Of a DNA stretch of 32,278 bases, positions 1,301 through 28,570 are shown piece after piece (positions within the stretch are counted from its first letter, which is position 1; each line of letters begins with the position of its first letter). The position numbers and the translations under genes were made by a program. The stretch spans positions 1 to 32,278 of the forward strand of contig CANQMM010000013.1 of assembly GCA_947624955.1 (NCBI GenBank), written 5' to 3'. The notes under the pieces were generated by a model. That model did not search any database and was not told the origin of the DNA. It saw only the letters and a list, made by a program, of their open reading frames with translations. The stretch comes from an uncultured Bacilli bacterium (GTDB taxonomy: Bacteria; Bacillota_I; Bacilli_A; RF39; UBA660).

Positions 1301-1708
1301 CTAAATATATTCTATATTATTTTCTTTACACCATTCTATGGCTATTTCTTTATACTTTTCATCTCTAAATTTATACCAATCATCAATAATATCAAAATTA
1401 ATACACGTGTCTTTAAATCTTCTAAATGCACCGCTTCCGTTTATTGCTATATATAATTGGTTGTAAAGTCTATTATCTTCTATTGTTTCAATAAAATCTT
1501 CCATCATACTGTATTCATTTATATAATATTTGGTAGGTAAGCCTATGTATTCATCATATATATTCTCTTTTTCTTCTTCTGAAATATCTGTAGTAAACTC
1601 ATCTATATAAACAATTTCATAAGTTTGGGGATTGAAATAAGCACTGGTATCCATTCCATCATTAGTAAATTCTAAAGCTTCTATAATCTCATCTAATTTT
1701 ACTTTCAT
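1301..1708 (-). CDS. UPF0158 family protein
   Basis: A 135-residue acidic cytoplasmic protein of a conserved family without an established function. The family signature is in the C-terminal half: GSGAFRRFKD around residues 91-100, then a DDWYKFRDEKY segment and an AIEWCKENNI end, matching the usual GAFRRFKD...WYxFRxExY...A.xWLxxNxI layout. There is no signal peptide or membrane segment, and the length is normal for the family. Its start is two bases downstream of the stop of the 463-aa gene, and no clear ribosome site stands directly before it beyond an AAAAGAG inside the upstream gene's end, which points to translational coupling. It is the last gene of a minus-strand unit led by a HipA-like kinase. 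Family recognition is firm; biochemical role unknown. Confidence 0.8.
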   Translation of the reverse strand: MKVKLDEIIEALEFTNDGMDTSAYFNPQTYEIVYIDEFTTDISEEEKENIYDEYIGLPTKYYINEYSMMEDFIETIEDNRLYNQLYIAINGSGAFRRFKDTCINFDIIDDWYKFRDEKYKEIAIEWCKENNIEYI

Positions 1709-1710
1709 AT

Positions 1711-3102
1711 CTATCTATACTCTTTTCTCATCTCTATAGGTGTCCATCCATTATTTATCCATATTCTAGAATTATTATATATTTCTATTAAATAATGTAA
1801 TATCTCAGGTGAATTTTTTTCTGTAATTTCTATTCCAAAATCTTGGAGCACTTCAATTGAAACACCTATATAAGTATTTCCTAACCTATACATATCAGAA
1901 ATTATTTTTATAATCATCTCAATAGTCTCTGTTGGTATATTTTTCTCTTTTAAATATTTTTTAAACATATTTTTAGCATCCGTTTCTTCATAATAATCAT
2001 AATTGGAATATTTAAGCAATTCTTCTAATTTAATTGGTCTTTTTTTAATTCTTTCTTGGCCTGAAATAATATCATGTAGTATATCTTCTAAATTTCGGCG
2101 CTGGAGAATTTTATGAACAAAATAGCAGTTATGATTTATATAAATTATATCTATATTATCAATTCTGTCGCAGAATAATAGGGCATTATTGGGAAAATCT
2201 AATTCATTACCATTTCCATAATATAGACTATAATAGTAATCCAAATAACTATATGGAATAACTCCATATAATTCAATCATTGATTTAATTAAATTATACG
2301 CCTTTGTATTTTCATCTACTATTTTTTGAATTTGTTTGAAATCTATCTTTTTAATAACATTATAAATATCATCAGTCATAGAAATATAAAATTTATTTTC
2401 TCTTTTGAATATAAAAACTAAACCGGTTACATATAAGAAATGGTATGTTTCCATACTTATGTTATTATCTTGAATTGTACCTTTATTTTGCATTAAATCT
2501 TTTAATAAATCAAATTCTTTATCTATAAATCTTTCTATTAAATCAGTTAATTTATCTTGATCAGTAAGAGCACTATATACAATTTCAACAAGTTCTTTTT
2601 TAGTTTTATGACTTAATCGATTAACATGTAGGAGCCCTCCTATATTTTTTAAATCCTTAACTATTAAAGTATCAAGTAACCACCTTAAATTCTTAATTAT
2701 TGGTGTATTTGCAGCATTTTCTAAATTAAATTCCTCTTCCGGCGTCATATTTTTTAATAATTTATTAATTATCTGTTTTATTTCAGTAGGTATATAATAA
2801 GAATAATGATTTCCATTGTTATAAACGAAAACAAAAAGAGATTTTACGTCTTGCTCATGAACATACATAACTTCAGAGTTTTCATAACTCATTAATTTGT
2901 CAAAATACGTTTTAGTAAAATTATCATCTTTAGATTCATTTAAACAAAATTCAAAATAATCTATAATATAATCTTTTAATTCATATATATTATTAACCCC
3001 AAATTCTTTTAACTTTTCATCAAGTAATTTTTTATCTAAAGCTTTTAATGAGGATAATAAATCTAGTTTACCTTTTTTTATTAAATATTTTTCGTACTTC
3101 AT
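1711..3102 (-). CDS. Hypothetical 463-aa protein with a Rho-N-like segment
   Basis: I do not recognise a functional family. The protein is soluble, rich in Asn, Ile, Lys and Tyr, without signal peptide or membrane segments. Around residues 160-180 there is an RLSHKTKKELVEIVYSAL stretch that resembles the short helix-extended-helix fold of Rho N-terminal domains (leucine-rich, K-K-E-L core). The C-terminus ends in NNSRIWINNGWTPIEM, resembling tails of Firmicute proteins that carry a SEC-C zinc motif, but no such cysteine motif is present here. The start is supported by AAGGAG six bases before the ATG. It lies 42 bases after the HipA-like gene and 2 bases before the UPF0158 gene, so the three are very likely one operon. 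A nucleic-acid-binding role would be only a guess from the Rho-N-like segment. Confidence 0.6.
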   Translation of the reverse strand: MKYEKYLIKKGKLDLLSSLKALDKKLLDEKLKEFGVNNIYELKDYIIDYFEFCLNESKDDNFTKTYFDKLMSYENSEVMYVHEQDVKSLFVFVYNNGNHYSYYIPTEIKQIINKLLKNMTPEEEFNLENAANTPIIKNLRWLLDTLIVKDLKNIGGLLHVNRLSHKTKKELVEIVYSALTDQDKLTDLIERFIDKEFDLLKDLMQNKGTIQDNNISMETYHFLYVTGLVFIFKRENKFYISMTDDIYNVIKKIDFKQIQKIVDENTKAYNLIKSMIELYGVIPYSYLDYYYSLYYGNGNELDFPNNALLFCDRIDNIDIIYINHNCYFVHKILQRRNLEDILHDIISGQERIKKRPIKLEELLKYSNYDYYEETDAKNMFKKYLKEKNIPTETIEMIIKIISDMYRLGNTYIGVSIEVLQDFGIEITEKNSPEILHYLIEIYNNSRIWINNGWTPIEMRKEYR

Positions 3103-3144
3103 ATTTTACTCCTTTTCATATTTGCAACTATTTTTTATATCATT

Positions 3145-4338
3145 TTAATCATTATTTAAAATTAGTTCTTTTAATTTATTAATTTGTCTATTTAATAAAA
3201 TACATAATTTATTAATTCGCGTATCAGAATAATTAGTTAAATGTTGATATTGATGTAATAAATCATCAAACCATTCTACTAGGCCATCTAATTTACTTAT
3301 ATCTATTCTTTTTATATTTTTAACTACTTTTATTATTTCATCGAAAGGTTTTACTTCATAGAATAATCTTCCACTACCGGAAATGTGTACTTCTTCTTCA
3401 TCATAATATTCAATATTTAAACTTTGACCATTATCAAATATAGGGGCTACATCTATCCATTCTAAAGTATTAACATCCCTTATTATACCAAAATTATTTA
3501 AATGTCTATCCTCATTCATAATTATATAATCTAAAATAAACATATTTTCAATCTTTTCACGAGCATTTTCTATATTATGTTCTTCTAATTTTTTAATATA
3601 TTCTTCATAATCTTCTATACTGTCATGTCGTTGCATATCATTTTTAATTTGATAGCAAGTAATAAGTTCTGTATCTTTAGTTATAAAACAAGGACATTTA
3701 GAAACGACAATATCTTTATAGGTATCAATTGTATATTCTACATGATTAAATCCCAATCTTTTACATATTTCACTTGCTAAAACTTCATTAAATGGTTGTA
3801 AAGTTTCATTCTTATAACCACCTTTTAATAAATATCTTATACCATTATCTATAATCCAAGCTTTTTTTAGCATTCCATCTGTCGTATTATTCGGGGTTTT
3901 TAAGGATGTTTCTTTAGTTATTTGATTACTATTAGTCGATAAAGAAGCTTCCATAAATTCTGCATAATCAAAATCATTATCAAAGAAATTGATATCGTCA
4001 TAGTAAAGGTTACTATCAATTGGTTTTAACCAATATTGATCTGATAAAGATAATCCAAAGGCTTTATCTAAAAGTTCATAAGGTGCTGTTATATTTAATC
4101 GATGTAATAATAAATCTAATTTATCACGCCATGAAGGGATACCTCTATTTTTAAACCACTCACTTAAATTAGTTCTAAAAGAAGAATCATTAATATCATT
4201 TTTAATATAAAAGTTTTTTAAAATATAGGGGGCATAATTAATATCATTAATTTCATATATTTCAGTAAAAACGCTTGTTGCAGGGTCATATTCAGCAATT
4301 AATACTTCTTTATTTTTATTCATAAGTATACATTTCAT
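3145..4338 (-). CDS. HipA-like serine/threonine kinase-fold protein
   Basis: A 397-residue member of the HipA-like kinases common in clostridia and relatives, a group distinct from the classical HipA that phosphorylates glutamyl-tRNA synthetase. An N-terminal region (about 1-106) carries the WFKNRGIPSWR and LSLSDQYW blocks typical of this subgroup. The kinase half starts near residue 157: K172 in YLLKGG fits the ATP-binding lysine, E185 a partner glutamate, N275-E-D-R-H279 with N282 the catalytic loop, and D302-N-G the metal-binding motif. All key kinase residues are thus present. No HipB-type antitoxin is adjacent; the nearest XRE gene is about 1.5 kb away and faces another gene set. A ribosome site AAGGCGGGTGA precedes the ATG and an extended -10 lies upstream. 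The substrate is unknown; I place it as first gene of a three-gene unit. Confidence 0.8.
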   Translation of the reverse strand: MKCILMNKNKEVLIAEYDPATSVFTEIYEINDINYAPYILKNFYIKNDINDSSFRTNLSEWFKNRGIPSWRDKLDLLLHRLNITAPYELLDKAFGLSLSDQYWLKPIDSNLYYDDINFFDNDFDYAEFMEASLSTNSNQITKETSLKTPNNTTDGMLKKAWIIDNGIRYLLKGGYKNETLQPFNEVLASEICKRLGFNHVEYTIDTYKDIVVSKCPCFITKDTELITCYQIKNDMQRHDSIEDYEEYIKKLEEHNIENAREKIENMFILDYIIMNEDRHLNNFGIIRDVNTLEWIDVAPIFDNGQSLNIEYYDEEEVHISGSGRLFYEVKPFDEIIKVVKNIKRIDISKLDGLVEWFDDLLHQYQHLTNYSDTRINKLCILLNRQINKLKELILNND

Positions 4339-4406: not shown

Positions 4407-4426
4407 AAAAAAGGAGTTTTCCTCCT
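4407..4426 (-). terminator. Terminator of the CwlJ-like gene, overlapping its stop codon
   Basis: Read on the minus strand: AGGAG, a GAAAA loop, CTCCT, then a run of T. The first stem bases are part of the TAG stop. It separates the hydrolase gene from the HipA-like operon downstream. Confidence 0.75.
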
Positions 4427-4847
4427 AATATATTTCGGGACATTCCCCTTGGTCTGGTCTATAGAAACAATGATTTTTATAACTGCCAGCATAGCTTTGG
4501 GAGTACCACGTAGATTTACAAGATTGCCCACTACCTGGAGCATAGAACCATAGAGCATCAGTGGCGGGATGATAATATTCTCCTCTTAAAACTCTTTTAG
4601 CTAAGTTCTTTTCTGTAGAGGTTGGCGTAGAATTAAATAAGGAACTTTGCGTACCGACAAATTGATTGGGTTGGTATATAGCATCAGTTATTGAACGGAT
4701 ATTTTTAAATGTTAGGCAGTTAGCTAAAACCCGGTTAGTAACGACATTACCGACCATTAGCATTCCTAAGTTTCCTTCGTTTAAAGCTTCTGCTCGCATG
4801 ATCCGTGCAAGGAGTTCTAATTCTTTAGTTGTATATTGAATAATCAT
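4425..4847 (-). CDS. Cell wall hydrolase of the SleB/CwlJ family (Hydrolase_2)
   Basis: A 140-residue protein covering essentially one Hydrolase_2 domain, the fold of the spore-cortex lytic enzymes SleB and CwlJ. The family start is at residues 10-20 (LELLARIMRAE), with E20 of RAEA at the position of the catalytic glutamate; then GNVVTNRVL, a YQPNQFVG block, an ATDALWFYAP segment and a KNHCFY end. There is no signal peptide and no peptidoglycan-binding domain, so its architecture is that of CwlJ rather than of exported SleB. Cysteines are unusually many in the C-terminal third for a protein expected in the cytosol. AGGTGA eight bases before the ATG supports the start. It has its own terminator and faces away from the tRNA. 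Whether this organism makes spores cannot be told from the window, so calling it a germination enzyme would go beyond the evidence. Confidence 0.85.
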   Translation of the reverse strand: MIIQYTTKELELLARIMRAEALNEGNLGMLMVGNVVTNRVLANCLTFKNIRSITDAIYQPNQFVGTQSSLFNSTPTSTEKNLAKRVLRGEYYHPATDALWFYAPGSGQSCKSTWYSQSYAGSYKNHCFYRPDQGECPEIY

Positions 4848-4929: not shown

Positions 4930-5003
4930 AGGGGCGTAGTTAAATGGTATAATAATGGTCTCCAAAACCACTGTTGGGAGTTCGATTCTCTCCGCCCCTG
5001 CCA
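4930..5003 (+). tRNA. tRNA-Trp (anticodon CCA)
   Basis: Full cloverleaf. Acceptor stem AGGGGCG pairs perfectly with CGCCCCT, followed by discriminator G and an encoded CCA. The D arm is GTTA/TAAT. The anticodon arm is ATGGT/ACCAC with loop CTCCAAA, giving anticodon CCA for UGG codons; the outermost pair of this stem is an A-C mismatch. The T arm has a TTCGATT loop. A single-gene unit with its own promoter and a hairpin directly after it. The CCA anticodon agrees with TGG as the Trp codon in neighbouring genes and with TGA as a stop. Confidence 0.95.
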
Positions 5004-5034: not shown

Positions 5035-5056
5035 ATAAATTGTAGAGGTGATTTGG

Positions 5057-5815
5057 ATGACTTTAGATTTTTCTAATGAAGTTAAATTGTTTATGATTTT
5101 TGATATTTTAGGTGATACTGAAAGAACTGGTCCTTTACTTTGGCATATAAATAGAAAACGATTAGAAGATATTAAAAATCATACTTTAGATTTAATAATT
5201 ATTTCTAGAATTTTAAGAAACTACTTACCATCTTATATTGATTTTGATAAGTTAACTGAATATATTATTTGTCATGATTTACCAGAAGCGATAACTGGGG
5301 ATATTACGATATTTGAAGGGGTTAGCAAAGAAGAAATAGCGCGAACAACAAATATTGCGGTTAAATTCTTACAGGAAAACTTTGGGGATATTATAAATTT
5401 TGAACATAATATTAATGCTTTTGAAAACGGTAGGGATATCGAAGCTAAAATTGCAAGAATGATTGATAAGATTCATTCGGCTACTACTTTTATAAAATAT
5501 CAAAGTGAAGCTAACGTTGATTTAAATAATCATTCTGTTATGCCAACTTTAAGAAATCACCCATTTGTTGTAGAGAAAGTATCGGAGGGGAAAGATTTGG
5601 CTGATATCTTTTACGAATTTCATTTAAGATCAGTTGATATTAGTGATGAAGAATGCGCAAAATATGGTATTAGTAGAACTGACGGTGATAAAATAGTAGA
5701 AGTTTTAAAGGAATTTGCTGCGGAAATGTATAAACAAAAATGTAATAAAACTTTATTTGATATCTATAATAAATTTCCATTAGATGCTATGAAATATAAT
5801 AGGAATAAAAATTAG
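5057..5815 (+). CDS. HD-domain phosphohydrolase (HD_3, YfbR-like nucleotidase group)
   Basis: A 252-residue metal-dependent phosphohydrolase of the HD superfamily. From the ATG at 5057 the metal-binding set is visible: H42 in KNHTLD, H73-D74 in ICHDLPEA, and D137 in MIDKIH. The CHDLPEAITGDI stretch is typical of the YfbR-type 5'-deoxynucleotidase/HD_3 branch; the exact substrate cannot be read from sequence. The C-terminal 110 residues go beyond the core domain. The ATG at 5057 is preferred over the GTG nine bases upstream because GAGGTG (5045-5050) is spaced correctly for it and overlaps the GTG. It sits close behind the tRNA hairpin with no space for a promoter. The nearby dCTP-deaminase-like genes suggest a shared theme of deoxynucleotide metabolism, an inference only. 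Confidence 0.75.
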   Translation: MTLDFSNEVKLFMIFDILGDTERTGPLLWHINRKRLEDIKNHTLDLIIISRILRNYLPSYIDFDKLTEYIICHDLPEAITGDITIFEGVSKEEIARTTNIAVKFLQENFGDIINFEHNINAFENGRDIEAKIARMIDKIHSATTFIKYQSEANVDLNNHSVMPTLRNHPFVVEKVSEGKDLADIFYEFHLRSVDISDEECAKYGISRTDGDKIVEVLKEFAAEMYKQKCNKTLFDIYNKFPLDAMKYNRNKN

Positions 5816-5843
5816 TAATAAATTGAAGTATTAAGAATTACAT

Positions 5844-5866
5844 AAGTTTTTGCTATTAAAAAACTT
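5844..5866. terminator. Stem-loop between convergent HD and XRE genes
   Basis: AAGTTTTT (5844-5851) pairs with AAAAACTT (5859-5866) across a short loop. It is AT-rich and lacks a T-tract after the stem on both strands, so it is a weak candidate for a bidirectional terminator. Confidence 0.4.
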
Positions 5867-5883
5867 AAATTGTATAGTTGTTT

Positions 5884-6141
5884 TTACTTTGTCTTTTTTA
5901 TAAGGTCATCTAAACTAACATCTAATGCTACGGATATTTTATATAATGTATCTACCGAAAAATTATAAGCAACCTTTTCACTTTCAATTTGTCTTATAAA
6001 TTCGTGGGATAAATCTACCATTTCGGATAACTCTTCTGATGTTATACCTCGTAATTTTCTATATTTTTTAATGTTTTTGCGAATGGTATTGTATATATCT
6101 GTATCATATTTTATTTTTTTGAGTGGTTTATCTAATCTCAT
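5884..6141 (-). CDS. XRE-family helix-turn-helix regulator
   Basis: An 85-residue protein consisting almost only of a Cro/C1-type HTH domain at about residues 18-80 (IRKNIKKYRKLRGIT, then SEELSEMVDLSHEFIRQIE, then LYKISVALDVSLDDLI). No second domain is present. GAGGCG precedes the ATG. It is transcribed away from the dCTP-deaminase-like genes; the 42 bases next to its start hold a possible -10 (TACAAT on the minus strand, 6160-6165) and a 25-bp palindrome begins at 6184. The simplest reading is a repressor that controls itself and the divergent genes. An antitoxin role is possible, but no toxin-like partner lies next to it. Confidence 0.8.
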   Translation of the reverse strand: MRLDKPLKKIKYDTDIYNTIRKNIKKYRKLRGITSEELSEMVDLSHEFIRQIESEKVAYNFSVDTLYKISVALDVSLDDLIKKTK

Positions 6142-6183
6142 ATCAACGCCTCTATATTTATTGTAGAGTATTACCTAACAAAG

Positions 6184-6208
6184 ATTTGTAAGGCATTGCC
6201 GTACAAAT
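6184..6208. promoter_or_regulatory. 25-bp palindromic operator candidate
   Basis: Arms ATTTGTA (6184-6190) and TACAAAT (6202-6208), inner arms GGCA (6192-6195) and TGCC (6197-6200), centre at 6196; only the 6191/6201 pair is broken. It covers the expected -35 region of the XRE gene and ends five bases before the -35 of the divergent genes, a position suited to joint control. The XRE protein is the obvious candidate ligand. Confidence 0.65.
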
Positions 6209-6212
6209 ATAT

Positions 6213-6241
6213 TTGCGATTTGTTAAAAATTATGTTACAAT
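6213..6241 (+). promoter_or_regulatory. Promoter of the dCTP-deaminase-like genes
   Basis: -35 TTGCGA (6213-6218), exact 17-bp spacer, -10 TACAAT (6236-6241). A start near 6248 would give a leader of about 165 bases before the ATG at 6412. Confidence 0.6.
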
Positions 6242-6247
6242 TTTATT

Positions 6248-6411
6248 GTCGATAAAAAGGGCACTGACATCAATATGTTATTAGATTGGCGGTTTACAGT
6301 AATAAAGTATAACTGACAATAGCAAGAGGAACACAAACAGTGTGGGAAGCCTTTTTATTTTTTAATAATAAGAATAATTTTATCCTTAATCAGGAAGGAT
6401 CAGGGAGTTTT
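6248..6411 (+). other. Long 5' leader with potential RNA structure
   Basis: The leader can form a closing helix GCACTG (6261-6266) with CAGTGT (6338-6343) around 71 bases, an inner TTATTA/TAATAA helix (6278-6283 with 6300-6305), or instead a local ACAC/GTGT hairpin (6331-6334 with 6340-6343) followed by a T-rich tract at 6352-6362. A further hairpin, ATCCTT/AAGGAT, sits just before the ribosome site. I do not recognise a known riboswitch class. The alternative pairings would suit an attenuator, but the helices are short and AT-rich. Confidence 0.35.
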
Positions 6412-6969
6412 ATGTTAAATAGTGAAGGATTAAAAAGAGAAATTAGGGAAAAGAATATATATGTGGATAATGCTGAGGATAAAATCGGGGAAAATTTTAT
6501 CTATGTAACATTAGGTGATACTTTAAAAGTATATGATACTCCGGTTTTAGATGTTAAAGAGCCGAGTGCTACTAAGCAAATAAAAATTCCGGAGGAAGGA
6601 TTAGTATTAGAACCGAATAAGTTATATTTAGGGAGAACTAATGAATATACGAAAACTTATGGTTATGTACCACTTTTATCAGGTTTACCGGAGTTAGCTA
6701 GTATCGGAATGGAAATTCACATAACCGCCGGGTTTGGTGATAATGGTTTTGAAGGAACGTGGACTTTGGAAATTATTTGTGCTAATCCGACGAGGGTATA
6801 TCCGAATATTCCTATTGGCAAAATTTATTATTATCCTTTAGTTGGTGATTCGAGTATTGAATATCGTGGTAAATACTTTGGACAAGTTGAACCAACGGAA
6901 TCGCGAATAGCTGCCGAATATAAATTAGCTTTAACACGAAAAGAGGGGGATAAAGATGTTAACAAATAG
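6412..6969 (+). CDS. dCTP deaminase / dUTPase-fold protein, single domain, altered GRSS motif
   Basis: A 185-residue protein of the dCTP deaminase branch of the trimeric dUTPase fold. Recognisable parts in order: an MLNSEGLKREI start like MILSDxDI of Dcd, the LEPNKLYLGRTNEY segment (66-79), HITAGFGDNGFEGTWTLEI (103-121), NIPIGKIYYYPL and a C-terminal KYFGQVEP. E120 lies at the position of the catalytic glutamate (E138 of E. coli Dcd). The GRSSLARLG motif, whose Ser and Arg also belong to the active site, is here SGLPELASIG (90-99), so the Arg and Ser are lost. ATG 6412 is chosen over a GTG at 6340 because the family N-terminus aligns there and GGGAG lies just before it. It overlaps the next gene by 14 bases. 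Alone it is unlikely to be a normal Dcd. Confidence 0.75.
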   Translation: MLNSEGLKREIREKNIYVDNAEDKIGENFIYVTLGDTLKVYDTPVLDVKEPSATKQIKIPEEGLVLEPNKLYLGRTNEYTKTYGYVPLLSGLPELASIGMEIHITAGFGDNGFEGTWTLEIICANPTRVYPNIPIGKIYYYPLVGDSSIEYRGKYFGQVEPTESRIAAEYKLALTRKEGDKDVNK

Positions 6970-7987
6970 TGAAATAAAAAGACAAATGGCATTAGGCAAT
7001 ATAAGTATTAGTGATTTAAAAAGTGGGGCTTTAGACAAACCAAACAGTTGTAAAGTCAGTTTAAGTGACGAATTATATTCTTTTGATTATTCTATTGTGG
7101 AAGCAAGGGGAAACGCCTTTTATAATAATGGTGATTTTAGTGACCAACCAACATTACGAAAAGTACGAATTCCTAAAACTGGTTTGTTATTAGAACCCCG
7201 TAAAGTATATTTAGCTAAAACTGCGGAGAGTATCAAAACCAATGGTTATATTCCGGTATTAAATGGGAGAACTTCATTGTCTTTGCTAGGAGTTAGTATT
7301 GAACTTACTAGTGGGTACGCGCAAGATAAATTTGATGGGCAATTTTTATTAAGTATTATTTGTACTAAACCGACAATTATTTATCCGGATATAGAAGTAG
7401 GAAATTTAACCTTTTTTAAGAGTTTAAGTGAAAAAGACGAAGATATAGGAATGCTAAGTGGTGAAGAAATTAAGAGAAGATTTACTACTGGCGAAATTGT
7501 AATTACTCCTCAAGATCATATCGTGATAAACCCTAATTCAGTAAATTTGAGTTTAAATAAGAATATGGGGTACTATGTAGATCCAGTATTAGATTTAAAT
7601 AAGAAAAATAAAGTGGAATATTTCACTATCGCGGAAAGTGGGACAATCTTGTATCCCGACAAAATTTATTTAGCGAGGTCCAATGAATGGACAGAAACTA
7701 GTAATCTCGTGCCAATGATGAGTGGCAGAAGTTCTCTTGGTAGGTTAGGATATCACGCCCATTGCTCAGCAGGTATGGGTTCGATTGGTTACAAAGGTTA
7801 TTGGCATATGGGAATTCGGCCAACAATGCCTATTAGAGTATATGAAAATATGAAAACTTGTCAAATATATTATTTTACGGTTGAAGGGGAGATAAGTGAT
7901 ACATATTCGGGCAGTATGCAAAACGTAGAAGAAAATGATTTAGGTAGTCAATATCATAAAACACTTTCAAAAAAGTATCCTAATTAA
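6956..7987 (+). CDS. Tandem double dCTP-deaminase-like protein
   Basis: A 343-residue protein with two copies of the Dcd/dUTPase fold. Copy one (about 1-160): LEPRKVYLAKTAES, GRTSLSLLG (104-112), SGYAQDKFDGQFLLSIIC; the catalytic glutamate position is S133. Copy two (about 166-343): an MLSGEEIKRRF start, the INPNSVNLSL strand (191-200), LARSNEWTET, an intact GRSSLGRLG (257-265) and HCSAGMGSIGYKGYW; the glutamate position is G286. Neither copy therefore has the catalytic glutamate, while the preceding gene's protein has it but lacks the GRSS motif. Fused double Dcd proteins are known in bacteria, so the fusion itself is not new. The ribosome site GAGGGGGA lies in the end of the upstream gene, with a 14-base overlap, indicating coupled translation and probably a joint complex. 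Confidence 0.75.
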   Translation: MLTNSEIKRQMALGNISISDLKSGALDKPNSCKVSLSDELYSFDYSIVEARGNAFYNNGDFSDQPTLRKVRIPKTGLLLEPRKVYLAKTAESIKTNGYIPVLNGRTSLSLLGVSIELTSGYAQDKFDGQFLLSIICTKPTIIYPDIEVGNLTFFKSLSEKDEDIGMLSGEEIKRRFTTGEIVITPQDHIVINPNSVNLSLNKNMGYYVDPVLDLNKKNKVEYFTIAESGTILYPDKIYLARSNEWTETSNLVPMMSGRSSLGRLGYHAHCSAGMGSIGYKGYWHMGIRPTMPIRVYENMKTCQIYYFTVEGEISDTYSGSMQNVEENDLGSQYHKTLSKKYPN

Positions 7988-14459: not shown

Positions 14460-14525
14460 TTTTTAGTTGCAAAAGTGACAAATTTGTTGTACTCTTTTAA
14501 GAGTGTTTGAAAAAGGGTGATTTGG

Positions 14526-16328
14526 ATGGAAAAGATTATCAACATAGCAGTTGTTGCCCATGTCGATGCGGGTAAGAGTACATTAGTTGATGCTTTATTA
14601 AATCAAAATGGGGTATTTAGAGCTAATGAAGAAGTAGTCGATTGTGTAATGGATAGTAATGATATCGAAAGAGAAAGAGGAATTACTATTTATTCAAAGA
14701 ACTGTGCTATTAGATATAAGGATTATAAAATTAATATAGTAGATACGCCAGGACATGCAGATTTTAGTAGTGAAGTAGAAAGAATTATTAAGACGGTTGA
14801 TACAGTTATTTTAATTGTCGATAGTGCAGAAGGGCCAATGCCACAGACAAGATTTGTTTTGAAAAAAGCACTTGAACAAAATCTAAGACCAATTTTATTT
14901 ATTAATAAGATAGATAAAAAGGATGCGAGAGTTAAAGAAGTTGTCGATATGACTTTCGATTTATTTATGGAGTTAAATGCTACCGATGAACAATTAGATT
15001 TTCCAATTGTCTATGGTATAGCTAGAGATGGTATTGCTAAACTTTCTTTAGATGAGGAAAGTGACTCGATTGCTCCTTTACTCGATGTCGTATTAAAACA
15101 AGTTAAACCTTATGAAGGTAATGAAAATGATAATTTACAATTACAGATTAGTTCCTTAGATTATGATGATTATATCGGTAGATTAGGTATCGGGAGAATT
15201 ACTAAAGGAAAGATTAAAGATGGTGAGACCGTCTCTTTAGTAAAGAATGACGGTAAGGTAGAATCATTTAGAGTATCTAAGTTATTCGTCAATGAAGGAA
15301 TTAAAAGAGTTAGTAAAGATGTAGCTTATTATGGAGATATGGTTATTATTGCCGGATGTAGTGATATATCGATAGGTGATACGATTTGTACGAAGGATGT
15401 CATCGATCCATTACCACCAATTGTTATTGAAAAACCAACATTATCAATGAACTTTTTAGTAAATAATTCTCCATTTGCCGGGAAGAGTGGAAAATACTTA
15501 ACTAATCGGCATATTAAAGAAAGACTTGATAAAGAATTAGAAACTAATGTCGGTTTAGTAGTCGAAGAATTACCAGGAGTCGATGGTTATAAAGTATCCG
15601 GAAGAGGCGAGTTACACTTATCAATATTACTAGAGAATATGCGCCGGGAAGGTTACGAACTTAGTGTATCAAAACCGGAGGTTTTATTTAAAGAAATCGA
15701 TGGTGTAAAATGTGAACCTTTCGAAAGAGTAATCGTTAATTGTCCAAGTGATTATTCCGGTACGGTAATCAATGATTTACAAGAAAGAAAAGCCGTCTTG
15801 GAGGTCGTATCCAATAACGCCGATAGTTATACGCATTTAGAGTTTTCTGCACCAACAAGAGGATTAATCGGTTATCGTAGTGCCTTTATTACGAATACTA
15901 AGGGCGAAGGTATTATGGTGAGAAGCTTTGAAGATTATAAACCTTATGTGGGACCAATTAGCGGCCGAAAAAATGGAGTTCTCGTTTCGATGGAAAACGG
16001 AAAAACTCTAGGTTTCTCTTTATTCAATTTACAAGAACGAGGAACACTCATTGTTGGACCAGCGGTCGATGTATATGTCGGAATGATTGTAGGGATTAAT
16101 AACCGGGATAATGATTTAAATGTCAATCCTTGTAAGAATAAACAATTAACTAACACACGAGCAGCGGGTAGTGATGAAGCCATTGCGCTTGTTAAACCGA
16201 AGACATTTAGTTTAGAAGAAGCGTTAGAGTTTATCGAAGATGATGAATATGTCGAGGTAACCCCAACGGATATTCGTTTAAGAAAGAAAATTCTCGATCC
16301 TAACGAAAGATTTAGAAATAATAGATAA
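14526..16328 (+). CDS. typA: Ribosome-associated translational GTPase TypA/BipA
   Basis: A 600-residue GTPase of the EF-G family that binds the ribosome and aids assembly and stress or cold adaptation. G1 AHVDAGKST (11-19), G2 RGITI (51-55), G3 DTPGH (73-77) and G4 NKID (127-130) are all intact. Domain order is complete: GTPase, the beta-barrel (about 197-290), the EF-G III-like domain with SGRGELHLSILLENMRREGYE, domain V with a PTRGLIGYRSAF block, and the TypA-specific C-terminal domain ending in TPTDIRLRKKILDPNERFR. Length is normal. ATG 14526 is used rather than the GTG at 14517, since AAAGGGTGA before it overlaps the GTG. A possible -35 TTGCAA lies upstream but the -10 is poor. Confidence 0.97.
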   Translation: MEKIINIAVVAHVDAGKSTLVDALLNQNGVFRANEEVVDCVMDSNDIERERGITIYSKNCAIRYKDYKINIVDTPGHADFSSEVERIIKTVDTVILIVDSAEGPMPQTRFVLKKALEQNLRPILFINKIDKKDARVKEVVDMTFDLFMELNATDEQLDFPIVYGIARDGIAKLSLDEESDSIAPLLDVVLKQVKPYEGNENDNLQLQISSLDYDDYIGRLGIGRITKGKIKDGETVSLVKNDGKVESFRVSKLFVNEGIKRVSKDVAYYGDMVIIAGCSDISIGDTICTKDVIDPLPPIVIEKPTLSMNFLVNNSPFAGKSGKYLTNRHIKERLDKELETNVGLVVEELPGVDGYKVSGRGELHLSILLENMRREGYELSVSKPEVLFKEIDGVKCEPFERVIVNCPSDYSGTVINDLQERKAVLEVVSNNADSYTHLEFSAPTRGLIGYRSAFITNTKGEGIMVRSFEDYKPYVGPISGRKNGVLVSMENGKTLGFSLFNLQERGTLIVGPAVDVYVGMIVGINNRDNDLNVNPCKNKQLTNTRAAGSDEAIALVKPKTFSLEEALEFIEDDEYVEVTPTDIRLRKKILDPNERFRNNR

Positions 16329-27241: not shown

Positions 27242-27259
27242 GTAGGGGTGGTGACATAT

Positions 27260-28570
27260 ATGAAAATATATAATAGTTTAACAGATAAAAAAGAAGAATT
27301 TGTGCCGATTAATCCGGGAAAAGTGACAATGTATGTTTGTGGACCAACGGTCTATAATTATGTTCATATTGGCAATATGCGGCCGGTGATTACGTTTGAT
27401 ATGGTCTATAACTATTTTAAATATTTAGGTTATGAGGTAACTTATGCGAGTAATTTTACGGATGTCAATCCGAAGATTATCGCAGCTGCTAAAGAGTTAG
27501 GCATTACCGAAAGAGAAGTAGCAGATAAATTTATTAAAGCTTATATGGATGATTTAAGTAGTTATAATTGTAGCAAGATTGATTACCGACCAAGAGTTAT
27601 TGAACATATGGAAGATATCTTTAATTTTATAAAAGCATTGATTGCTAAAGATATGGCTTATGTAGTCGATGGCGATGTCTATTTTAGAGTAAGTAAAATT
27701 AAAGATTATGGAATATTATCTAAGCAGAATGTCGAAGAATTAATTAGCGGAGCAAGAGTAGAAATCGATGATAAGAAAGAAGATCCTTTAGATTTTGCTT
27801 TATGGCGGAAGACGACGGAAGGTGAGCAGTTTGAATCTCCTTGGGGAGTAGGCATTCCCGGATGGCATACCGAGTGTGTCGTAATGATCAATAGTTTATT
27901 TGGGAGCAAGATCGATATTCACGGTGGGGGCGTCGATTTAAAATTTCCGCATCACGAAAATGAGATAGCCCAAAGTATGGCTTTAAATAATACCCATTTA
28001 GCTAATTATTGGCTGCACAATGGCCATATAAATGTCGATGGGGAAAAGATGAGTAAGAGTTTAGGAAACTTTATTCTAGCAAAGGATTTTATCAAAATGC
28101 ATAGTGCAAATGTCATAAAGATTGCTATGTTTAAGACCCATTACCGCTTACCACTTAATTTTACGGATGAGGTATTTAATGAAGCGCAAGTAATTGATGA
28201 AAAGATTGCTAATGTATTAAAGCAAGCGAATGTAGTTATTCAGTTAAATAATCTTGAGGTCGGTAAAGTTAAGACGGATGAGAAGATTAACGCAATAATG
28301 GATGAAGATTTTAATACTCCTAATTTAATTACTTATTTACTAGATTTAGTTAAAGACTTAAATAATGCTCTAAGAAAAAATGAGACAATAGAGGAATTAT
28401 ATGATAGAATAGTATTAATAAATCAAATACTTGGATTAAAGTATGATTTATTAGTGATGAGTGAAGAAGATAAAGAATTGTATAAGAAATGGTTAGAATA
28501 TCGTAGTAATAAAGATTTTATTAATGCGGATAAATTAAGAGAAATATTAATGAATAAAGGAATATTATAG
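27260..28570 (+). CDS. cysS: Cysteinyl-tRNA synthetase
   Basis: A 436-residue class I synthetase that charges tRNA-Cys with cysteine. Signature HIGN at 36-39 and KMSKS at 263-267. The zinc site that selects cysteine is complete: C27, C206 (GWHTEC), H231 and E235 (HHENE). The C-terminal anticodon-binding part is somewhat shorter than in E. coli (461 residues in total). Two small departures from the common family sequence: NFTDVNPKII where NITDVDDKII is usual. ATG 27260 is preferred over the GTG codons at 27248 and 27251, which fall within the AGGGGTGGTGA ribosome site. yugP follows after eight bases, suggesting one transcript. Confidence 0.97.
   Translation: MKIYNSLTDKKEEFVPINPGKVTMYVCGPTVYNYVHIGNMRPVITFDMVYNYFKYLGYEVTYASNFTDVNPKIIAAAKELGITEREVADKFIKAYMDDLSSYNCSKIDYRPRVIEHMEDIFNFIKALIAKDMAYVVDGDVYFRVSKIKDYGILSKQNVEELISGARVEIDDKKEDPLDFALWRKTTEGEQFESPWGVGIPGWHTECVVMINSLFGSKIDIHGGGVDLKFPHHENEIAQSMALNNTHLANYWLHNGHINVDGEKMSKSLGNFILAKDFIKMHSANVIKIAMFKTHYRLPLNFTDEVFNEAQVIDEKIANVLKQANVVIQLNNLEVGKVKTDEKINAIMDEDFNTPNLITYLLDLVKDLNNALRKNETIEELYDRIVLINQILGLKYDLLVMSEEDKELYKKWLEYRSNKDFINADKLREILMNKGIL

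What the first reader, a model, noticed from the sequence alone, without database searches (positions are those of the whole stretch)
1301..4338. HipA-like kinase in an operon with a 463-aa unknown protein and a UPF0158 protein
The kinase has all catalytic residues but no HipB-type antitoxin beside it. The two downstream genes are separated by 42 and 2 bases. A kinase without classic antitoxin followed by conserved unknowns may be a new toxin-antitoxin-like or defence module in which one of the two unknowns neutralises or is the target of the kinase.
Basis: partly seen in the sequence, partly recalled or inferred. Interest (0 to 1): 0.52.

Follow-up and report, generated by a model that had tools for sequence, protein, structure and literature searches.

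The report
Roaming HipA-like kinase with interchangeable neighbours
In small-genome gut bacteria a HipA-like protein kinase that has no obvious antitoxin sits in an operon with two unknown genes; the kinase is usually found without them, and the trio looks like one combination drawn from a pool of interchangeable unknown genes rather than a fixed three-gene toxin-antitoxin module.

Summary
In detail: three co-directional genes on the minus strand, UPF0158 (1301-1708), an unknown 463-aa protein (P463, 1711-3102) and a HipA/CtkA-like kinase (3145-4338), with gaps of 2 and 42 bases and no HipB-type gene beside the kinase. The fixed-module reading does not hold. Of 386 genomes of the family, 59 carry the kinase, 38 UPF0158 and 22 P463 or one of its domains; only 2 carry the adjacent trio (a third lies outside that sample). 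The kinase, with its own promoter-like site, stands beside 52 gene clusters in 64 loci with a co-directional downstream neighbour. P463 is the commonest (7), and 6 of 8 full-length P463 genes in the 386 genomes lie directly downstream of the kinase, so that pair is a real, recurrent association. UPF0158's usual partner is a SWIM zinc-finger protein (16 of 35 places). Pairings among kinase, P463, UPF0158, SWIM, PRiA4_ORF3, DUF6429 and other families form a combinatorial network. P463 is predicted, with modest support, to be winged-helix-rich. Best reading: a mobile, antitoxin-less HipA-type kinase that joins one of many interchangeable partners. Toxicity, defence and neutralisation remain untested.

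The parts
3145..4338 (-). HipA/CtkA-like Ser/Thr kinase, 397 aa; N-terminal domain (about residues 1-148) with the family motif SLSDQYW, then the HipA_C kinase core
1711..3102 (-). P463: 463-aa protein of two separable domains (N residues 1-117; C residues 118-463), predicted winged-helix-rich; pairs with the kinase in 8 contigs
1301..1708 (-). UPF0158 family protein, 135 aa
4365..4371 (-). -10-like TATAATA, 33 bases before the kinase ATG; inferred own promoter of the kinase (and of the downstream genes)
   Evidence: TATAATA with at most 1 mismatch in 77 of 89 kinase upstream regions, mean 51.6 in shuffles
4412..4426 (-). terminator-like hairpin separating the upstream hydrolase gene from the kinase
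   Evidence: 2 found; shuffled mean 1.0, so weak on its own
4425..4847 (-). Hydrolase_2 cell-wall hydrolase, upstream neighbour; not judged part of the unit
   Evidence: the only HYD-KIN pairing in the set

Best explanation
The kinase is a stand-alone, horizontally mobile HipA/CtkA-fold Ser/Thr kinase with its own promoter. In this lineage it has lost, or never had, the DNA-binding antitoxin-type part that distant relatives carry as a fused HTH domain or an upstream HicB-type gene. P463 and UPF0158 are not dedicated parts. They belong to a pool of interchangeable small families (P463, UPF0158, SWIM zinc-finger protein, the 'C15' ~520-aa protein, PRiA4_ORF3, DUF6429, an integrase-SAM-like protein, the 'F240' ~240-aa protein) that assemble into short co-directional operons, and the kinase sometimes heads such an operon. 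Inferred, not shown: the kinase controls itself in cis through its N-terminal HipA-like domain and loop autophosphorylation; it slows growth by phosphorylating a cellular protein, as HipA and HipT do; and where P463, a predicted winged-helix-rich protein, is co-transcribed, P463 is a nucleic-acid-binding partner that tunes or redirects it. UPF0158 is a passenger in most genomes.
For: Neighbour diversity: 70 clusters upstream in 87 loci, 63 downstream in 85, 52 among the 64 with a co-directional downstream gene. Pairings of pool families counted: UPF-SWIM 14 and SWIM-UPF 2; KIN-P463 8; P463-UPF 3; UPF-P463 1; C15-P463 3; C15-UPF 3; UPF-C15 2; SAM142-P463 3; DUF6429-P463 2; KIN-C15 2; C15-KIN 1; KIN-SWIM 2; KIN-PRIA4 2; UPF-PRIA4 2; KIN-DUF6429 1; UPF-KIN 1. 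Horizontal spread: kinase 83% and 87% identical to G158 and G221 while the best full-length TypA match is 51% and 54%; G062, G054, G004 and G091 are alike (kinase 83, 78, 81, 78%; TypA 55, 53, 52, 53%). Own promoter. Family solutions elsewhere: fused HTH (L269, L272; L259) and an upstream HicB gene overlapping the kinase. Kinase fold: CtkA Z 17.5 over 212 residues, Shewanella HipA Z 14.7 over 284 residues spanning model residues 2-397.
Against: The kinase-P463 link is far above chance (6 of 8 full-length P463 genes in 386 genomes; genome co-occurrence 15 of 22 against 3.4 expected, and 9 of 16 where unlinked), so P463 may be more than one of many partners. In 3 of 8 pairs UPF0158 follows. The kinase model is mediocre (mean pLDDT 69, residues 66-157 largely under 50), so the cis-regulatory N-domain is weakly based. 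Kinase and P463 distances do not correlate over 8 pairs (Mantel r 0.18, p 0.26), which fits swapping but has little power. The loci were mostly chosen by kinase, P463 or UPF0158 similarity, so its counts are not unbiased frequencies. Toxicity and target are untested.
Confidence: 0.6

Rival explanations
1. A two-gene toxin-antitoxin or defence pair of kinase and P463 (UPF0158 a passenger): P463, a winged-helix DNA-binding-type protein, takes the place of HipB, binds and restrains the kinase and represses the promoter.
For: Same order and orientation, 14-97 bases apart, in 8 contigs whose outer neighbours differ; 6 of 8 full-length P463 genes in 386 genomes lie next to the kinase; winged-helix-like model with mean pLDDT 85; in one pair the kinase has an in-frame stop while P463 is intact (L087), as expected if the kinase is the harmful part.
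Against: Most kinase genes stand without P463 and are conserved all the same (P463 follows in 7 of 85 loci with a readable downstream gene). Kinases with P463 do not cluster on the kinase tree (8 changes, shuffled mean 7.8), although one clade is not rejected (p-AU 0.07). Two full-length P463 genes follow DUF6429 instead. No recurring operator-like palindrome clearly above shuffles (22 against 16.9).
Confidence: 0.2
2. A true tripartite module in which P463 or UPF0158 is the neutraliser or the substrate of the kinase.
For: Kinase-P463-UPF0158 in the same order in three contigs: window, L101 (G158) and L096.
Against: Two of 386 genomes; UPF0158 is far more often with a SWIM-domain protein (16 of 35 places). 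In L082 and L233 other genes follow P463, and in L087, L094 and L102 no UPF0158 is seen in the 132-222 bases left after P463.
Confidence: 0.07
3. A solitary kinase that is an ordinary signalling or housekeeping regulator, not a toxin; neighbours are chance cargo of variable regions.
For: The kinase stands alone in other families of the class too (22 of 295 phylum-level genomes at E 1e-25 or better; gene maps) and is under strong purifying selection (dN/dS 0.14).
Against: Patchy distribution (59 of 386 genomes) and horizontal spread do not suit housekeeping; chance cargo does not explain the P463 link.
Confidence: 0.13

Closest known systems
CtkA of Helicobacter pylori (PDB 3akj, 3akk, 3akl)
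   Same: Closest solved relative by sequence (E 1.4e-14 with the profile) and by fold (Z 17.5, 212 residues aligned, 24% identity); a HipA-fold kinase.
   Different: The match covers the kinase core only (model residues 158-397 in the best row); the window kinase has a further N-terminal domain. CtkA is reported as a pro-inflammatory kinase whose activity needs a type IV secretion system (seen in search listings only); nothing here suggests secretion.
HipA / HipT / HipL / HipH families of Gerdes et al. 2021 (PMC8262856, Results read)
   Same: HipA-fold kinase; HipH (YjjJ) and HipL are also encoded by single-gene operons.
   Different: No HTH (HipH) or HIRAN (HipL) domain was found in the window kinase by Pfam. 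Distant relatives of this kinase do carry a fused HTH. The HipS-like nature of its N-domain is suggested by the fold only.
PDC-M03A, a candidate defence protein of PADLOC-DB
   Same: Best hits of the kinase in PADLOC (E 2.1e-20, core residues 151-369).
   Different: The tool gives no curated cut-off. P463 and UPF0158 hit nothing in PADLOC, so the partner differs. One of 120 immediate neighbours of the other kinases matches PDC-M03B (which one was not identified).
HipA-like kinase + DUF3037 (PDC-M66, DS-6)
   Same: A two-gene system of a HipA-like kinase and a protein of unknown domain, described as functioning on its own in phage defence (passages of PMC12548924).
   Different: The partner there is DUF3037; P463 has no Pfam match above cut-off.

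Membership tests
HipA-like Ser/Thr kinase | HipA_C domain above the Pfam cut-off | tested here: met
   32.7 bits against 30.5
HipA-like Ser/Thr kinase | Conserved catalytic Asp, Mg-binding Asn/Asp and ATP Lys | tested here: met
   Invariant in 15 rows; at least 97% conserved in 92 rows
HipA-like Ser/Thr kinase | Kinase activity and growth inhibition | not testable with these tools
   bench only
hipBA toxin-antitoxin module | Adjacent HTH (HipB) antitoxin gene | tested here: not met
   Window neighbours are Hydrolase_2 and P463. At the other loci no small upstream gene recurs; those genes were clustered and read by eye, not each profiled.
hipBST / HipS-HipT | Short kinase lacking the N-terminal subdomain, with a separate HipS gene | tested here: not met
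   The kinase has a conserved N-terminal domain of about 148 residues; the upstream gene is a hydrolase
HipH (YjjJ) | Single-gene operon, N-terminal HTH fused to the kinase | tested here: not met
   No HTH in the window kinase; distant relatives L269, L272 and L259 have one
HipL | Kinase core followed by HipS-like and HIRAN domains | tested here: not met
   The kinase core is C-terminal and no HIRAN hit was found
HipA with N-subdomain-1 | N-terminal domain homologous to HipA N-subdomain-1 / HipS | tested here: inconclusive
   HipA structures align from model residue 2 (4pu4_B, Z 14.7), but part of the N-domain has pLDDT under 50 and no sequence match was found
PADLOC PDC-M03 | M03A kinase together with an M03B partner | tested here: inconclusive
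   M03A hits only; no M03B hit to P463 or UPF0158
UPF0158 | PF03682 above cut-off | tested here: met
   42.5 bits against 21.1

The most novel reading that the evidence does not exclude
A combinatorial operon system of gut Bacilli: a roaming antitoxin-less HipA-type kinase acts as a common effector, and a pool of interchangeable nucleic-acid-binding-type proteins (winged-helix P463, SWIM, integrase-SAM-like, PRiA4_ORF3, UPF0158 and others) supplies swappable sensors or neutralisers, analogous to the mix-and-match of toxins and antitoxins or of defence sensors and effectors, with P463 the kinase's most frequent partner.
Probability: 0.2. Interest if true: 0.72.

Novelty: new variant of a known kind. 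Interest (0 to 1): 0.42.

Why it matters
HipA-type kinases are mostly known next to an antitoxin. Here a large, mobile branch (at least 547 relatives by tblastn in one scan) does without one in most contexts looked at, so it must be controlled in another way. Fused-HTH, HicB-paired and bare forms within one family make the gain or loss of control directly testable. The combinatorial pool around UPF0158 also gives a first functional handle (co-operonic partners) on several conserved families of unknown function, and a concrete pair (kinase and P463) for a toxicity and rescue test.

Tried and rejected
Operator-like palindrome ATAAAGTTTAT upstream of the kinase: present in the window and some relatives, but 22 of 89 against 16.9 in shuffles; dropped.

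Defence-island test: immediate neighbours (120) and genes four or more places away (120) were both scanned against PADLOC at 1e-20. Both hold restriction, helicase and other defence-like hits; the tool lists families, not distinct proteins, so no enrichment can be claimed. Each list lost one of 121 entries when I handed it in (a fragment of the broken kinase of L087; one control gene of L084).

Kinase tree: P463-bearing kinases scattered (8 changes, shuffled mean 7.8; an earlier tree with fewer pair rows gave 5 changes), but the tree is poorly supported and one clade is not rejected (p-AU 0.07), so repeated independent joining is not shown. For the tree ten distant kinases were left out.

P463 fold: Foldseek found nothing at E 0.001 or better (PDB; BFVD). 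VIA-align best rows Z 6.5 (TFIIIC eWH, TFIIH p52 regions), within the range its notes call common, so 'winged helix' rests on the predicted secondary structure plus weak matches. The profile search against PDB sequences gave nothing below E 0.1. Plasmids and viral contigs gave no P463 relative.

CysRS as a yardstick showed two very different types (69-86% and 35-38%), so I rely on TypA, which may also hold two types (73-94% and 51-55% among full or near-full matches).

Co-occurrence P values ignore phylogeny. 'PDC-M03' was not found in the paper library. UPF0158 appears in one paper there, seen in the listing only. Searches for HipA with CtkA, HicB or gut Firmicutes gave no paper on this kinase-P463 pairing that I saw in the listings.
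Full report
OBSERVATION. The three genes are as described: UPF0158 1301-1708, a 463-aa protein 1711-3102 and a kinase 3145-4338, all on the minus strand, gaps 2 and 42. Pfam names the kinase HipA_C just above cut-off and the small protein UPF0158, and nothing above cut-off for the middle one; NCBIfam adds nothing above its cut-offs. PADLOC gives candidate-defence PDC-M03A hits for the kinase core only. The window belongs to a 1.17-Mb, 65-contig genome. Its kinase relatives come mostly from metagenome-assembled Bacilli, many from isolates named 'Lapin' (record titles).

THE KINASE. It is single-copy in its own genome. The catalytic set is invariant. AlphaFold2 on 15 sequences gave mean pLDDT 69 with a poor stretch at 66-157. 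Foldseek and VIA-align place it with CtkA (Z 17.5, core) and with HipA from residue 2 on (Z 14.7, 284 residues). The N-terminal domain with an SLSDQYW-like motif recurs in relatives across the class. In distant relatives control parts vary: HTH_17 fused in Collinsella (L269) and HTH_3 fused in Vescimonas (L272); HTH_3 fused in another genome of the class (L259); a HicB gene overlapping upstream on a Selenomonas plasmid. The window kinase has none of these.

IS THE TRIO A UNIT? I scanned the same 386 genomes of the family for each gene: P463 profile, 22 genomes; UPF0158, 38 genomes (down to E 0.001, weak hits included); kinase profile at E 1e-30, 59 genomes. Of the 22 P463 genomes, 8 have the full-length protein; 6 of these 8 lie directly downstream of the kinase and 2 do not. 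The other 14 hits are partial or weak: N-domain alone (8, of which G181 and G374 lie at contig ends) or C-domain alone (6), none with the kinase within the held flank. Genome co-occurrence of P463 and kinase is 15 of 22 against 3.4 expected, and still 9 of 16 where they are not linked; UPF0158 with either is only a little above expectation (5 against 2.2; 10 against 5.8) (no phylogenetic correction). Two more pairs come from the genome-contig scan that was seeded by the kinase (L096, L102), making 8 pairs in all: window, L082, L087, L094, L096, L101, L102, L233. Intergenic gaps are 14-97 bases and P463 carries an AGGAGT-like ribosome-binding site in most. UPF0158 follows P463 in 3 of the 8 (window, L096, L101). 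In L082 and L233 other genes follow, and in L087, L094 and L102 none is seen in the 132-222 bases left.

WHAT ELSE STANDS BESIDE THE KINASE? In the loci left after dropping six duplicates, four viral loci and short fragments, the upstream neighbour falls in 70 clusters over 87 loci, the downstream one in 63 over 85, and the co-directional downstream one in 52 over 64, P463 being the commonest (7). A serine-recombinase-type cluster is the commonest upstream (10 of 87; named by reading its sequence). The kinase has its own promoter-like -10 in most loci. Its sequence is far more alike between distant genomes than TypA is: G158 83% against 51%, G221 87% against 54%, G062 83% against 55%; for the closer G021 and G041 the values are 86/82 and 77/80. 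This indicates horizontal spread.

THE POOL. Mapping twelve families over the loci held, most of them chosen by similarity to one of the three genes, gives the pairings listed under Best explanation. UPF0158 (35 places) pairs with SWIM 16 times, LysM 7, C15 5, P463 4, PRIA4 2, SAM142 2, DUF4143 2, F240 1, the kinase 1. P463 (24 places) pairs with the kinase 8 times, UPF0158 4, C15 4, SAM142 3, DUF6429 2, F240 2, LysM 2. The kinase (97 places) pairs with pool members in 17 cases (P463 8, C15 3, SWIM 2, PRIA4 2, DUF6429 1, UPF0158 1). Pfam supports SWIM, PRiA4_ORF3, DUF6429, DUF3990, DUF4143 and integrase-SAM labels for sampled members; C15 and F240 are my own labels for families without a Pfam hit or not scanned.

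P463. AlphaFold2 on 19 sequences gave mean pLDDT 85, pTM 0.65, with repeated helix-wing elements. Best structural rows are winged-helix regions of TFIIIC and a region of TFIIH at Z 6.5, weak by the tool's own notes. A nucleic-acid-binding role is therefore a modest inference.

SELECTION AND LINKAGE. dN/dS medians: kinase 0.14, P463 0.27, UPF0158 0.41. One kinase (L087) has an in-frame stop beside an intact P463. Kinase and P463 distances do not correlate over the 8 pairs (r 0.18, p 0.26), and pair-bearing kinases scatter on a weak tree.

KNOWN KINDS. Single-gene HipA-type kinases (HipH, HipL) and many partner types are described in PMC8262856 (Results read); a HipA-like kinase with DUF3037 is described as a defence system of its own (passages of PMC12548924). 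The window kinase is thus a new variant in a known kind. What I did not see described in the searches is its pairing with P463 or the UPF0158-centred pool.

VERDICT. The module reading is too strong for the trio and open for the kinase-P463 pair. The broader pattern, a roaming antitoxin-less kinase in a pool of swappable partners, is the part worth a specialist's time.

Noticed in passing
window 5048-7987 (+): HD_3 (YfbR-like) protein followed, across a minus-strand XRE gene, by two genes with three dCTP-deaminase-like (PF22769) domains in all; nucleotide-depleting defence comes to mind, but PADLOC gave no hit.
   Followed up: partly
window 4930-5003 (+): tRNA-Trp (CCA) next to the operon; together with the LysM amidase and Hydrolase_2 genes that recur around P463 or UPF0158 in L069, L073 and L234 this may mark a variable site.
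   Followed up: partly
L070 6233-8348: Repeated short ORFs whose translations repeat units that look like a CRISPR array beside a UPF0158 gene (recognised by eye).
   Followed up: no
L122 1511-4732 (+): A 1073-aa protein that reads like a UvrD-family helicase starts 8 bases after a kinase of this family; a neighbour in the same set hits PDC-M03B, possibly this one.
   Followed up: no
L263, L264, L265: Relatives of the kinase in 0.7-0.8-Mb genomes contain in-frame TGA codons, suggesting TGA read as tryptophan.
   Followed up: no
L233 762-1286 (-): DUF3990 gene in the same orientation downstream of a kinase-P463 pair; a similar-looking gene lies beside the kinase of L250.
   Followed up: no
window 14517-16328 and 27248-28570: TypA and CysRS of this genome fall into two very different identity classes within the family, suggesting old transfer or paralogy.
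   Followed up: no
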